Shown: positions 4,200-16,268 of the stretch, piece after piece | Layout of the letters: each line of letters begins with the position of its first letter | Position numbering within the stretch: the first letter of the stretch is position 1 | DNA from: a virus | Direction: 5' to 3' (one strand) | DNA: 62,420 nt | Virus record (IMG/VR): IMGVR_UViG_3300033997_000134 | Location: 1 to 62,420 of that record | Translations under genes and position numbers: made by a program | The notes under the pieces: generated by a model | What the model was told of the DNA's origin: nothing | Databases searched by the model: none | Seen by the model: the letters and a program-made list of their open reading frames with translations, nothing else

Positions 4200-5141
4200 A
4201 TGTTCAAGAATTTAATCATTTATCGAATTGCTGCGCTGTGGTCTGCAAATCTGACACAGGTTGAAGAAGCTCTGCAAAAGTCGCCTTTCATGCCTTGTGG
4301 TGCCACGCAGGAAAAGTCTGCAGGCTGGGTGCCGCCACGCGGGGAAGCCCATGGTGCGCTGGCGGAAAGCGTGGGCGGGCAGTGGATGCTGCGCTTTATG
4401 AGTGAATCCAAAATGTTGCCTGCCAGCGTGCTCAACCGTAAGGTGCAGGAAAAAGCCGATGCGATTGAAAAGGAGTTTGGCCGCAAGCCGGGCAAAAAAG
4501 AAAAGCGTGACCTCAAGGACGAGGCCAAGCTGGATCTGCTGCCCATGGCTTTTACCAAGCAGTCCAGCATGTGGGTGTGGATCGATCCGCAGGCCCACTT
4601 TCTGGTGCTGGATACAGGGGCTCAGGGCAAGGCCGACGAGGTGGTCACGCTGCTGGTGGAAAGCCTGCATGGCTTTGGCGTGGCATTGCTGGATACGCAG
4701 ACCAGCGCCACGGCTGCCATGGCGCATTGGCTGGTCACGCAGGAGCCTCCTGCGGGTTTCAGCATTGACCGCGAGTGCGAGCTGAAAGCGTGCGATGAAA
4801 GCAAGGCCGTGGTGAAGTATGGCCGCCACCCGCTGGACATTGACGAGGTGAAACACCACATCGAGCACGGCAAGCTGCCTACCAAGCTGGCCATGACCTG
4901 GGACGACCGTGTGAGCTTTGTGCTGACGGACAGCCTGCAGATCAAAAAGATTGGCTTTACCGACACGGTGCTGGATCAGGCCGGTGATGAAGGCGGCTTT
5001 GACACCGATGTGGCGATTGCCACGGGCGAGTTGAGCAAGCTGATTCCCGACTTGATCGAAGCGCTGGGTGGCGAAGGCCGTACTCAAGCCACTGGACGGG
5101 AAGGCTGCCAGAAGTCAAAGCTGCACTGGCGCGCGAACTGA
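4200..5141 (+). CDS. rdgC: recombination-associated protein RdgC
   Basis: 313 residues beginning with the RdgC-typical MFKNLIIYRI and containing the family's internal blocks (PFMPCGATQEKSAGWVPP, LLPMAFTKQSSMWVWIDP, WDDRVSFVLTDSLQIKKIGF) and the C-terminal TGELSKLIPDLIEALGGE. Bacterial RdgC is about 300 residues and forms a ring around double-stranded DNA that restrains RecA filament growth. The last 20 residues extend beyond the usual end. A phage copy may limit host RecA, which could stabilise lysogeny or favour phage recombination. Identification is firm; the phage role is inferred. Confidence 0.93.
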   Translation: MFKNLIIYRIAALWSANLTQVEEALQKSPFMPCGATQEKSAGWVPPRGEAHGALAESVGGQWMLRFMSESKMLPASVLNRKVQEKADAIEKEFGRKPGKKEKRDLKDEAKLDLLPMAFTKQSSMWVWIDPQAHFLVLDTGAQGKADEVVTLLVESLHGFGVALLDTQTSATAAMAHWLVTQEPPAGFSIDRECELKACDESKAVVKYGRHPLDIDEVKHHIEHGKLPTKLAMTWDDRVSFVLTDSLQIKKIGFTDTVLDQAGDEGGFDTDVAIATGELSKLIPDLIEALGGEGRTQATGREGCQKSKLHWRAN

Positions 5142-5214: not shown

Positions 5215-5240
5215 AGCCCGCCACCGTGCGGGCTTTCTTT
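5215..5240 (+). terminator. intrinsic terminator, CACCGT loop type
   Basis: AGCCCGC-CACCGT-GCGGGCT followed by TTCTTTTTT; same family as the hairpins at 3563 and 6321. It precedes the AAGGAG site and ATG of the first lectin-like gene. Confidence 0.75.
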
Positions 5241-5258: not shown

Positions 5259-5858
5259 ATGCATGTCGCACGCATTCAAACTGCTCATTTCCACTTTGCA
5301 CCAGGAGCAAGCTCGAAAGCCATCGCCAGTCTTGAACGCGCCATGCAAAACATTGGGCGCACAGACGGAGCCACTTCCCAGCCCGTAAAAGCCATCAGCA
5401 CCCTGCCAACGATCGGTGAGTATTGGGAAGGCCAAGGCGGCTTCTTTGCTGGCGACTTCCGCGCAGATGACGGAACGGTCTATGGCTTGATCGTGGCCGA
5501 CTGCGGCACCGTGCAAGACGCAGGCCGCGCCCGCCATTGCGAAAACGGAAAGCGCGACCTGTCGCAGTGGGATGGATTGGATAACACGCAGCGCCTCAAG
5601 AACGGCTGCCCAGCCGCCCAACTGGCCATCCAGCACAGCGCAGACGGTCATGGCGACTTTTACCTGCCTGCCCGCCGCGAGCTGCAGTTGGCATGCGCCA
5701 ACGTACCCCACCTCTTCGGCGGCGAGAGCTGGTACTGGAGCAGCACACCCCATAGCGACGACTACGCCTGGGCTGTCGACTTCGAGTACGGCCGCGCGCA
5801 CGACCGCTACCGGAGCACCGAGTTCCGTGTTCGCCCCTTCCGCAGATTCATCTATTGA
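5259..5858 (+). CDS. DUF1566/C-type-lectin-like protein A (199 aa)
   Basis: 199 residues from ATG 5259, with AAGGAG at 5248-5253. The C-terminal half (about 65-199) matches the DUF1566/Lcl_C pattern: WYWSST, AWAVDFE, then a short variable stretch, and a closing EFRVRPFR. This fold is C-type-lectin-like and is a common target of diversity-generating retroelements. The first about 60 residues are unlike the next gene and may mediate attachment. The 3' end (5766-5845) is nearly the same as that of the following gene, with changes only at codon positions 1 and 2. Surface or ligand-binding role inferred; no signal peptide seen. Confidence 0.75.
   Translation: MHVARIQTAHFHFAPGASSKAIASLERAMQNIGRTDGATSQPVKAISTLPTIGEYWEGQGGFFAGDFRADDGTVYGLIVADCGTVQDAGRARHCENGKRDLSQWDGLDNTQRLKNGCPAAQLAIQHSADGHGDFYLPARRELQLACANVPHLFGGESWYWSSTPHSDDYAWAVDFEYGRAHDRYRSTEFRVRPFRRFIY
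5766..5845 (+). repeat. variable-repeat-like 80-bp segment, copy 1
   Basis: This 80-bp segment aligns without gaps to 6206-6285. There are 11 mismatches in seven codons (for example TAC/AGC, CGC/GAC, AGC/CAC), and none of the mismatches is at a third codon position. All flanking codons are identical including silent sites. Every differing codon fits mutation of the adenines in an AAC (or ACG) template codon, the pattern left by diversity-generating retroelements. The last 26 bp are invariant, as at a mutagenic-homing site. Confidence 0.6.
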
Positions 5859-5902
5859 TCTCTTCACCTCTTTCATCACCCATCAACCACAGGAGCATCC
5901 AC

Positions 5903-6307
5903 ATGGGCACTACCCCTGAACTCAATCAAGCATGGCCTGAGCAGGGCGGCATCTTCGTTGGCACCCGCCTCATCAATGGCCAGGCGCACCACATCATCAT
6001 CCCCGGCGGCGTTGAGCACGATGCCAAAGGCGTGAAGTTTGATGACGCATCCGCAGCGATCCCCAAAGAACTCAACGGGCACAGTGACTGGCGCCTGCCT
6101 GAGAAAGAAGACTTGCAGCTGGCCTATATCAACAGCCGCGAACACTTCGAGCAAAAGGGCGTGGCCAGCCTGTACTGGTCCGGGACTGAAGAAGACGAAG
6201 ACTGGGCCTGGGCTGTCGACTTCGAGAGCGGCGACACGGACAACCGCTACCGGCACCGCGAGTTCCGTGTTCGCCCCTTCCGCAGTTTCCTCGCTTCATC
6301 GCTTTAA
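5903..6307 (+). CDS. DUF1566/C-type-lectin-like protein B (134 aa)
   Basis: 134 residues from ATG 5903, with an AGGAG site 7 nt upstream. It shares with protein A the core DWRLPEKEDLQLAYIN, LYWSGT, WAWAVDFE and EFRVRPFRSF, but lacks A's extra N-terminal segment. Its variable positions in the C-terminal block (SGDTDN, RHRE) differ from A (YGRAHD, RSTE). The pair looks like paralogous ligand-binding domains, either tandem duplicates or independently diversified. No reverse transcriptase or template repeat is visible nearby. Family assignment good, function unknown. Confidence 0.75.
   Translation: MGTTPELNQAWPEQGGIFVGTRLINGQAHHIIIPGGVEHDAKGVKFDDASAAIPKELNGHSDWRLPEKEDLQLAYINSREHFEQKGVASLYWSGTEEDEDWAWAVDFESGDTDNRYRHREFRVRPFRSFLASSL
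6206..6285 (+). repeat. variable-repeat-like 80-bp segment, copy 2
   Basis: Partner of 5766-5845. Variable codons here are AGC, GAC, ACG, GAC, AAC, CAC and CGC in place of TAC, CGC, GCG, CAC, GAC, AGC and ACC. Six of the seven end in C in both copies and the seventh pair ends in G in both, so all divergence is at positions 1 and 2. Confidence 0.6.
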
Positions 6308-6320
6308 CTATTTGCGGGCA

Positions 6321-6346
6321 TAGCCCGCCACCGTGCGGGCTTTTTT
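6321..6346 (+). terminator. intrinsic terminator with possible competing stem
   Basis: AGCCCGC-CACCGT-GCGGGCT plus TTTTTT. An upstream GCGGGCATA (6314-6322) can pair with the left arm instead (GCGGGC-ATA-GCCCGC), so an alternative hairpin would disrupt the terminator. Confidence 0.7.
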
Positions 6347-6688: not shown

Positions 6689-7191
6689 ACCGCGCTGAAC
6701 GTCGAAACGCAAAAAAGCAAGCAAAGCGCAAAGCAGCTGCGCCACGCAGACACTTTGATCTGCCAATCAATATACGCTTTTCCGAAAAAGAGGAAACAGA
6801 TTTGATGCTGGCACCCATGGTGTGCTTGGAAAACATGCGCGCTGGTGTCGGTGCAGAACAAGACTGGCACGGCCTCACCTTGCGGCTGAACTGGGCGAGA
6901 TTGCTTAACAAAGCCAACTTCCACGGTGGCGAGGAAGAAATAGCGGCGGCCCAGGCGGATCTGCTGGCCATCAAGCAGCGCGGCTGGAAAGTTGAAGCCG
7001 ACGAGTACGAGCGCATCCACACAGCGCTGGTGCTGTGCAACCAGATGCAAAAGGCCAGCACACGGCGCGAATTGCTGCAGTCCTTGCGGGCCACTTTTCT
7101 TGCCAATGAATACAAGCAAAAGATTCGGGCCATCAAAGACAGCATCGAGACACCCACTTATGAGTCCATCCCACGTGCGCTGGCGCATTGA
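6685..7191 (+). CDS. hypothetical protein (168 aa)
   Basis: 168 residues, start fixed by the ATGA overlap with the HTH gene. Very basic N-terminus (NRAERRNAKKQAKRKAAAPRR), a feature common in small phage proteins that bind nucleic acid, followed by an acidic helical body. No catalytic motif seen. Neighbouring genes overlap in series, so it belongs to one translational block from 6365 to 7572. Confidence 0.6.
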   Translation: MNRAERRNAKKQAKRKAAAPRRHFDLPINIRFSEKEETDLMLAPMVCLENMRAGVGAEQDWHGLTLRLNWARLLNKANFHGGEEEIAAAQADLLAIKQRGWKVEADEYERIHTALVLCNQMQKASTRRELLQSLRATFLANEYKQKIRAIKDSIETPTYESIPRALAH

Positions 7192-11886: not shown

Positions 11887-12888
11887 TTACTTCACACTAA
11901 GGCGCTTGGCCAATTCCGAACCTTTGGGGTTGTAATAGGTCAGTGCCCGCGTGGTGTTTGTCCAGCCAAACACTTTGCACAAATCAAGCACATGCAGCAC
12001 CTGCGCCATGCGGGTTGCTGCTGTATGCCTGGAGTCATGGAATGTGAAGCCAGATAATCCAGCCCGCTCCCGGTACTTACGAAACATGGCATCCAGTGAT
12101 TGAGCCTTGAGCCCAAACACCTTTTCGTCATCGAAACCGCGCATGCGCTCAAACGTGCGCCGGGCCTCTGGGGTCAAGGGAACCTGCCTTCCCTTCCCTG
12201 TCTTTGTGCTCCCTGCATGCAATATGCAGTAGTCCTCTCGCACATCACACCACTTCAATTCTGTCAGCTCTCCAGCACGCATCCCAGTTTGCAGCGCTGC
12301 GACAAAGCAATTGGCAACCGCCTGTGAAATCGCACGGACGGGTTTTTTTCGTGACCACTTCAATGCCCGCAACATCTTGCGGATTTCGAGCCCAGTAATA
12401 ATGCGCTCTCTGTGGTCAGGCTCTGCTGGCTTGCGCACGTCTTTCATGGGGTTGATGGCTATCCACCCCCACTCTCTGCGCGCGACTTCCAGCACATTCC
12501 CGATCACTACCATATCCCGAAGGACTGAACCTCTGGCCACTTGCTTCAATCGTGCATCGCGCCATGCAGCCAAGTCCTGTGTCGTCAGGTCGTGAAGTTT
12601 GATATTCACGGGGAATTTTTCATGCTTGGCTATAGCCTGCAACCGAATACCCTCGGCGCGCCAGCCTCGCTTGTTTGGAGTGACTTCTTTGGCGTAGCGA
12701 TCCAAAGCGTCAGCCATAGTCTTAATGGTGCCAATCATTCCGCTGGACTGCAGACGAGAGTCGAGTCTCTTTTTCGCAATCCAGTCGTCAGCTTCGCGTT
12801 TGGTAGCGAAGGTTTGGCCAATCCGCTGGCCTTTGACTTGCATTTGAACCCGCCACGTGCCTTCGGCGGTCTTTTTTGGAGTTGCCAT
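11887..12888 (-). CDS. int: tyrosine-recombinase integrase
   Basis: 333 residues with the phage integrase layout. An N-terminal arm-binding part (GTWRVQMQVKGQRIGQTFAT) is followed by a core-binding helical region, then the catalytic domain. Catalytic residues visible: Arg in TGMRAGELTELKW (about 203), HDSRH within TFHDSRHTAATRM (about 283), a Trp in place of the usual second His in FGWTNTTRALTYYNP, and the nucleophile Tyr near 318. It is encoded opposite to the excisionase-like gene and directly abuts the attP-like region. It would join the circular phage genome to the host att site. Confidence 0.93.
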   Translation of the reverse strand: MATPKKTAEGTWRVQMQVKGQRIGQTFATKREADDWIAKKRLDSRLQSSGMIGTIKTMADALDRYAKEVTPNKRGWRAEGIRLQAIAKHEKFPVNIKLHDLTTQDLAAWRDARLKQVARGSVLRDMVVIGNVLEVARREWGWIAINPMKDVRKPAEPDHRERIITGLEIRKMLRALKWSRKKPVRAISQAVANCFVAALQTGMRAGELTELKWCDVREDYCILHAGSTKTGKGRQVPLTPEARRTFERMRGFDDEKVFGLKAQSLDAMFRKYRERAGLSGFTFHDSRHTAATRMAQVLHVLDLCKVFGWTNTTRALTYYNPKGSELAKRLSVK

Positions 12889-15155: not shown

Positions 15156-16268
15156 TTACCCCCCGTAGTGATTACAAGCAAGGCGCAAGCTAGTACTCCA
15201 GAGAGAACTCCAAGCGTTCAACGCCCAGTTGGATGAGCGAGAGCCAGAATTTGCCAGTGAGGTGCGCCCGCCTCCATACAAAGCTGGATATGTCACACCA
15301 TAAGTAGAACCACGGTTTACCCCTGCCACCCAAGAAGTCCCACTGTTAGAAGCTATCTCGCTACCAAATGTATAGACGTGCCCAGTCATTTGCTCGCCGC
15401 CGCAGCGCGATGTAAATCCAGGCTGCCGTTTTGTGGATGGGATGGTTACTGCATCACCGCCAAGCGATTGTGCCTCGGTCACGCCAAATGCTGCGGCAGA
15501 GAACTCAGATCCGCTAAGTAAACGCTTGCCGTGACTTGCTGCAACCTCGTTCGCTTCATGCCACGATAGCGCGGCATACTTTGCGCTGCCGTTACCACCA
15601 AACATTGTGGGTATCAGCGGGGGAACCGACCCACTGGCTACGTCCGTGTTGTAGCGCGATGTGCCATTGATAATGTGCTGGGTGCTACAAAAATAAATAT
15701 CAAACCAGCAGCCACCATCTATACGCACCATGCCGCGCGGATCACACGTTGGCCGGTAGTTCAGATCCCAGATGCTGTGCGCGTTGATGCCTGCAATCTT
15801 GTCCACATCGGCTTGCGTCCAGATCATGCCGGGCCCAGTGGTTGCAAAACTGCCCCCAGCCACCGTAGTCCCCGGCGCCACCAGCCCGTAATGAAACCCG
15901 CCGATCTGCACCGCTCCAGCCTGCGCAGGCGTCAGCACATACGGGGATGGCTTGCCATTGGCTGCTGCAAACGCTGTGCCGCTGGGCGTCACCCATACCC
16001 CGTAGTCCTCTCCCGCAACCATGCTTGCAGGCATCTGCACAGCCGTATCTGCGGTGAAAGACTTATAGCCACTGCCCACTCGCACCAAAGTCCCGGCCTT
16101 GACTGCCAATGTGGCTGCTGCAGTTTTGGTCAGGCACGGCTTGGATGGTGATACCAGCACCGGAAAGAAATCAGCAGGCAGCGCGCCGCTGCCAGCGCTT
16201 TGCTGCAGCGCTTTAATGTCTGCGCCCACTGCCGCAAACCCCGCCGAAATCCGCTCCTGCAGCGTCAT
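15156..16268 (-). CDS. mtd-like: Mtd-like receptor-binding tail protein (DGR-target family)
   Basis: 370 residues; BPP-1 Mtd is 381. The C-terminal domain (about 170-370) follows Mtd closely: GMVRIDGGCWFDIY, HIINGTSRYNTDVASG, IPTMFGGNGSAKYA, SHGKRLLSGSEFSAAAFG, ending ALYGG...SGSRSSNW...RLACNHY, which aligns without gaps to the Mtd variable region. The C-type-lectin fold displays about a dozen variable residues for receptor binding. No template repeat, Avd or reverse transcriptase is visible in the window. Variable-position codons here do not end mainly in C, so recent adenine mutagenesis is not evident. Confidence 0.85.
   Translation of the reverse strand: MTLQERISAGFAAVGADIKALQQSAGSGALPADFFPVLVSPSKPCLTKTAAATLAVKAGTLVRVGSGYKSFTADTAVQMPASMVAGEDYGVWVTPSGTAFAAANGKPSPYVLTPAQAGAVQIGGFHYGLVAPGTTVAGGSFATTGPGMIWTQADVDKIAGINAHSIWDLNYRPTCDPRGMVRIDGGCWFDIYFCSTQHIINGTSRYNTDVASGSVPPLIPTMFGGNGSAKYAALSWHEANEVAASHGKRLLSGSEFSAAAFGVTEAQSLGGDAVTIPSTKRQPGFTSRCGGEQMTGHVYTFGSEIASNSGTSWVAGVNRGSTYGVTYPALYGGGRTSLANSGSRSSNWALNAWSSLWSTSLRLACNHYGG

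What the first reader, a model, noticed from the sequence alone, without database searches (positions are those of the whole stretch)
5766..6285. Paired lectin-like genes with DGR-type divergence but no retroelement
Two adjacent DUF1566/C-type-lectin-like genes end in 80-bp segments that differ at 11 positions in seven codons, all at codon positions 1 or 2, with all silent sites identical. All seven differing codons fit mutation of A in AAC or ACG template codons, and the final 26 bp are constant. This is the signature of adenine-specific mutagenic retrohoming. I find no reverse transcriptase, Avd or template repeat in the window, so diversification may occur in trans from a host or resident element, or be historical.
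Basis: partly seen in the sequence, partly recalled or inferred. Interest (0 to 1): 0.85.

Follow-up and report, generated by a model that had tools for sequence, protein, structure and literature searches.

The report
Phage hypermutation targets without their machinery
Two neighbouring phage genes carry clear marks of a targeted-mutation machine (a diversity-generating retroelement), but the machine itself is missing from this record, and a junction beside the genes suggests it was deleted recently.

Summary
Genes A (5259-5858) and B (5903-6307) end in 80-bp blocks that differ at 11 positions, none at third codon positions. All 11 fall on adenines of the template repeat (TR) of independent relatives (hypergeometric p = 6.7e-8). 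I found intact versions: 29 other phage or genome contigs carry A/B-type targets with avd and a reverse transcriptase (RT). In 22 cassettes aligned in detail the order is A-B-avd-TR-RT, TR codons are nearly all AAC, and VRs differ from TR almost only at A (420 A changes against 9 others). The window has A and B but no avd, TR or RT. After B it keeps the relatives' hairpin (GCGGGCATAGCCCGC), then runs straight into a terminator like those following RT in relatives; both share GCCCGCC. Best reading: a diversity-generating retroelement (DGR) cassette that recently lost avd-TR-RT, leaving orphan targets. Similar losses occur elsewhere in the family. Diversification in trans is not excluded but lacks positive support: the host is unknown, no matching TR was found, and VR similarity to a foreign TR is not significant after correction. 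DGR loss with retained targets is known in Treponema; this is a phage example with a readable scar.

The parts
5259..5858 (+). Target gene A, 199 aa, Lcl_C/DUF1566 C-terminal domain, phrog_4245-like
   Evidence: translation; PF07603 E 2.6e-8 (34.6 bits, just under the 34.9 cut-off); phrog_4245 E 5e-25; orthologue precedes B in relatives
5766..5845 (+). Variable repeat (VR) of gene A; variable codons 5787-5819, constant 3' end 5820-5845
5903..6307 (+). Target gene B, 134 aa, Lcl_C/DUF1566 domain
   Evidence: PF07603 E 4e-12, over cut-off; orthologue followed by avd in relatives
6206..6285 (+). Variable repeat (VR) of gene B; variable codons 6227-6259, constant 3' end 6260-6285
6314..6328 (+). 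Hairpin GCGGGC-ATA-GCCCGC, 28 bp after VR_B, conserved after gene B in relatives (post-VR hairpin position of DGRs)
   Evidence: alignment of post-B sequences; DNA fold of 6306-6332 -7.5 kcal/mol, z -3.5
6322..6346 (+). Terminator-like AGCCCGCCACCGTGCGGGCTTTTTT fused to the hairpin through a shared GCCCGC arm: inferred scar of the avd-TR-RT deletion
   Evidence: relatives have avd at this point and a similar terminator directly after RT (L010, L011, L018, L019)
5215..5236 (+). Terminator copy upstream of A; 22 bp identical to 6322-6343, so A-B is flanked by direct repeats
   Evidence: Sequence read; folding z -3.6
4200..5141 (+). RdgC-like gene; RdgC also neighbours intact cassettes in several relatives, on either side (context only)

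Best explanation
Genes A and B are the two target genes of a DGR cassette of the order A-B-avd-TR-RT that is carried as an accessory module by many phages, several of them in Comamonas and its relatives. Shown: the targets, the two variable repeats and the post-VR hairpin after B are present, the variable positions coincide with template adenines of relatives, and avd, TR and RT are absent from the record. Inferred: the machinery was lost by a deletion joining the hairpin after B to the terminator after RT, through their shared GCCCGCC arm. Also inferred: the loss is recent, because the 55 non-adenine positions compared are identical in A and B, as in living cassettes. The two proteins are now fixed (or slowly drifting) variants, unless a co-resident DGR with a matching template rewrites them in trans; the VRs and the hairpin would still be suitable substrates.
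For: 29 distinct contigs hold A/B-type targets with avd and RT; avd is PF22296 bAvd and RT is PF00078, and the RT carries IGNLSSQ and YVDDM motifs (seen in the ORF). In 22 cassettes VRs differ from TR at 420 of 866 A sites but only 9 of 2434 other sites. Window A and B differ at 11 sites, all template A (p 6.7e-8), with the same A/B agreement as intact cassettes (35% against 35%) and 0 of 55 constant differences. The window's post-B sequence follows the relatives through TTTGCGGGC.TAGCCCGCC, then leaves them where avd should start and becomes a terminator like the one after RT in L010, L011, L018 and L019. The same kind of loss is seen in L116 and L118 (first five avd codons kept, rest gone), L101 (B truncated) and L003/L023 (two deletions leaving an RT fragment). 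No targets were detected in 12 phages with a related portal, which fits an accessory module.
Against: No relative with an identical right-hand flank and an intact DGR was found, so the deletion end points are inferred from different phages. A-B could have arrived already without machinery. The window is classed as a linear record that may be a fragment, so an RT in a missing part cannot be excluded. The shared GCCCGCC is short and such terminators are common in this phage.
Confidence: 0.78

Rival explanations
1. The targets are still diversified in trans by a DGR in the host chromosome or a co-resident prophage, whose TR matches them.
For: VRs and the hairpin after B are intact, and 0 of 55 constant positions differ. 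The constant VR positions equal those of the L014/L005-type TR apart from positions close to the ends of the block, although the gene bodies are diverged at silent sites (54% identical codons in A and 67% in B, against 12/12 and 11/11 in the VR). Remote targets served in trans are described in Treponema and cyanobacteria (PMC4891356, PMC7517822).
Against: The VR-block signal is the best of 249 gene-pair comparisons (p 0.0014) and does not survive correction. Only 4 of 53 genomes in the Comamonas genus had any matching repeat. No TR of the window's exact type was found in IMG/VR. L116, which first looked like trans rewriting after RT loss, turned out to have a gene A body nearly identical to L120 and is explained by recombination. 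The host is unknown.
Confidence: 0.13
2. The phage acquired the A-B pair alone, already without machinery, by recombination at the repeated terminators.
For: A-B is flanked by 22-bp identical terminator copies (5215-5236, 6322-6343). Targets were not detected in phages with related portal proteins. L116 shows that an RT-less module can recombine between phages.
Against: Capture still requires an earlier separation from avd-TR-RT; the hairpin-terminator fusion after B is what a deletion inside the cassette would leave.
Confidence: 0.15
3. Ordinary duplication or gene conversion between paralogous genes, with selection for changes in seven codons.
For: A and B are paralogues sharing a near-identical 80-bp block.
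Against: All 11 changes lie on template adenines defined by independent relatives. The same pattern, with a TR and RT, is seen in 22 cassettes.
Confidence: 0.02
4. The missing avd-TR-RT is an assembly artefact.
For: Some metagenomic relatives (L112, L113, L128) have VR-like sequence at the TR position, possibly a repeat collapse.
Against: A VR-TR collapse would leave the RT downstream. Here the sequence leaves the cassette about 44 bp after the VR, at a 7-8 bp match too short for an assembler join, and continues into unrelated genes.
Confidence: 0.03

Closest known systems
DUF1566/Lcl_C-target DGRs with two targets (the intact A-B-avd-TR-RT cassettes found here, e.g. L014/L005, L010 Comamonas suwonensis EJ-4, L013 Acidovorax MAG)
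   Same: Same two target genes in the same order, same VR layout, same hairpin after B, same adenine-specific pattern
   Different: The window lacks avd, TR and RT
Bordetella phage BPP-1 DGR (Mtd target)
   Same: Adenine-specific VR diversity at the 3' end of a gene, with a hairpin downstream of the VR that is required for homing in BPP-1; phage DGRs have it 4-34 bp after the VR (PMC3240598)
   Different: Targets here are short Lcl_C proteins in an accessory region beside rdgC rather than the tail fibre; the hairpin loop is ATA with a 6-bp stem rather than GRNA with 7-10 bp; no machinery
Treponema denticola isolates with target genes left after loss of the core DGR (PMC4891356)
   Same: Target genes persist after the core module is gone; remote targets exist
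   Different: Chromosomal and several targets; here a phage with a readable junction

Membership tests
Diversity-generating retroelement (complete, autonomous) | DGR-type reverse transcriptase | tested here: not met
   RVT_1 search of the record: 0 matches; searches with a family RT: no real hit
Diversity-generating retroelement (complete, autonomous) | Template repeat with adenines at variable positions | tested here: not met
   Only the two VRs match a template-like query in the record; TRs of relatives have the expected A
Diversity-generating retroelement (complete, autonomous) | Accessory variability protein (Avd) | tested here: not met
   No convincing avd match in the window (best E 0.025); bAvd present in relatives
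DGR target (variable protein) gene | VR at the 3' end of an ORF with adenine-specific, non-silent variation | tested here: met
DGR target (variable protein) gene | C-type lectin / DUF1566-like scaffold | tested here: inconclusive
   Pfam Lcl_C for B over cut-off, A just below; AlphaFold models had mean pLDDT 36 and were not used
DGR target (variable protein) gene | Post-VR hairpin and constant 3' end of the VR | tested here: met
   After B: hairpin 6314-6328, conserved in relatives, though the loop is not GRNA. After A no such hairpin, as in most close relatives
Active DGR target | Ongoing variation at VR in a population | not testable with these tools
   No reads and no second isolate of this phage available

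The most novel reading that the evidence does not exclude
RT-less phages keep orphan target pairs that are rewritten in trans by DGRs of co-resident prophages, so that targets and machinery circulate separately between phages.
Probability: 0.13. Interest if true: 0.72.

Novelty: new variant of a known kind. Interest (0 to 1): 0.42.

Why it matters
It gives a recent-looking case of a phage shedding its hypermutation machinery while keeping the diversified proteins, next to a family of intact cassettes for comparison. It lets one ask whether the value of these cassettes lies in a good fixed variant or in continued diversification, and whether the DGR of one prophage can serve targets of another.

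Tried and rejected
Host genome: the record is a virus entry with no host genome; searches of 53 Comamonas-genus genomes and 401 drawn from its family found no genome carrying the window's VRs (in the second only two candidates per genome were scored). TR of the window's type in IMG/VR: not found. Trans rewriting in L116: rejected, since its gene A body is near-identical to L120. TR-type mosaic in the window: suggestive, not significant after 249 comparisons. Right-flank relatives through the protein at 6703-7188: none. Relatives by portal protein: 50-68% identical phages, no targets or RT detected in the 12 searched; the tool notes that a search with no positive control shows little. AlphaFold models of A and B: mean pLDDT 36, unusable, so no fold search was run. 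Annotated phages and plasmids: no useful match.

Full report
What is there. The window is a linear IMG/VR virus record of 62,420 bases with an integrase at 11887-12888 (-) and terminase and portal genes at 46-51 kb, so it is probably a temperate phage. The reported blocks are real. VR_A (5766-5845) and VR_B (6206-6285) differ at 11 positions in seven codons, with no third-position change and an identical 26-bp 3' end. They form the longest direct repeat of the window. Gene A is 5259-5858 (199 aa) and gene B 5903-6307 (134 aa); both match Pfam Lcl_C (the DUF1566 family), B above and A just below the cut-off, and phrog_4245 of unknown function.

The missing machinery exists in relatives. A DNA pattern and a protein search of viral contigs returned L005 and L008. 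In both, orthologues of A and B are followed by a 153-aa bAvd protein, a third copy of the repeat with AAC at the variable codons, and an RT. Further searches brought the number of distinct contigs with A/B-type targets, avd and RT to 29, including Comamonas suwonensis EJ-4, C. testosteroni JL40 and an Acidovorax MAG. In 22 cassettes examined base by base, VRs differ from their TR at 420 of 866 adenines and at 9 of 2434 other positions. This is the standard DGR pattern.

The window fits that pattern as a target. Using the TR of L014, from another phage, all 11 A/B differences are at template adenines (p = 6.7e-8). Agreement between A and B at the 17 AAC/ACG adenines is 6/17, the same as in intact cassettes (118/340). 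None of the 55 non-adenine positions compared differs. The last point means that the last rewriting of both VRs by one template was recent on the scale of silent divergence, or is continuing; with 55 sites the bound is loose (about 5% divergence between the two).

The window lacks avd, TR and RT, and the place where they should be carries a junction. In relatives gene B is followed by TTTGCGGGCGTAGCCCGCC, a few bases and the avd start codon. The window has TTTGCGGGCATAGCCCGCC and then ACCGTGCGGGCTTTTTT. After RT, L010, L011, L018 and L019 have AGCCCGC..., a short loop and GCGGGCTTTT. The simplest account is a deletion joining the hairpin after B to the terminator after RT through their common GCCCGC(C), which removes avd-TR-RT and leaves B intact. 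This is an inference, because the flanks belong to different phages. A terminator with 22 identical bases also lies before A (5215-5236), so capture of the pair by recombination at terminators remains a rival.

Loss of machinery recurs. L116 and L118 have targets followed by the hairpin and only the first five codons of avd. L101 has A and a truncated B. L003/L023 has lost part of B with its VR, most of avd, the TR and the first part of RT. None of the RT-less records searched holds a full RT. Several others (L012, L099, L100, L117, L123) end too close to the targets to judge.

Is it still active in trans? The VRs and the hairpin after B would be usable substrates: in BPP-1 a hairpin downstream of the VR is needed for homing and upstream sequence is not, and phage DGRs have that hairpin 4-34 bp after the VR (PMC3240598); here it is 28 bp downstream with a 6-bp stem and an ATA loop. 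The window's constant VR bases equal those of the L014-type template except near the ends of the block, while the gene bodies are diverged. But this is one extreme among 249 comparisons and not significant after correction. L116 looked like a case of rewriting after RT loss, but its gene A body matches L120, so recombination explains it. No host genome is available, and related repeats were found in only 4 of 53 Comamonas-genus genomes. I therefore favour a recent relic and keep trans activity as an open minority reading.

Known context. DUF1566 is reported as the most common named domain of DGR targets (PMC6642488). [quoted passage not shown] What is added here is a phage instance with a readable junction inside a family of intact and decayed cassettes. 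The function of A and B is unknown. They lie beside rdgC in an accessory part of the genome, not among tail genes, so a role as receptor-binding tail protein is not indicated. Structure prediction failed.

Noticed in passing
window 15156-16268 (-): A separate tail gene with the Mtd second domain (PF21916) and phrog_11262; no second copy of its 3' end was found in the window, so no DGR link was seen.
   Followed up: partly
L112 11498-11577, L113 11588-11667, L128 11516-11595: At the TR position these three metagenomic cassettes carry VR-like sequence (6-8 A at the scored positions instead of 14-17): either assembly collapse between VR and TR, or a template overwritten by its target.
   Followed up: no
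L116 10945-11040 and L118 10945-11040: Two RT-less phages share the same junction after five avd codons (MALHT), while the gene A body of L116 matches the RT-bearing L120: recombination of an RT-less module between phages.
   Followed up: partly
L023 10001-10400: Decayed cassette with two internal deletions joining the start of B to a piece of avd and to RT from about codon 154.
   Followed up: partly
L105, L111, L112, L115, L119, L121, L122, L128 (e.g. L119 8280, L121 5243): A third target with VR lies about 2-6 kb upstream of the cassette in many members, mostly those with the more distant RT type.
   Followed up: no
L009 (NZ_CACSJA010000047.1): The contig is titled Pantoea sp. 18069 but its genome is listed in the same genus as Comamonas suwonensis; the record name is probably wrong.
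   Followed up: no
L099 and L100 (IMG genome 2895133753, two prophages): Two prophages with the same genome identifier have gene A; one VR is almost unmutated template (16 of 17 A), the other heavily changed. Both records end inside gene B.
   Followed up: no
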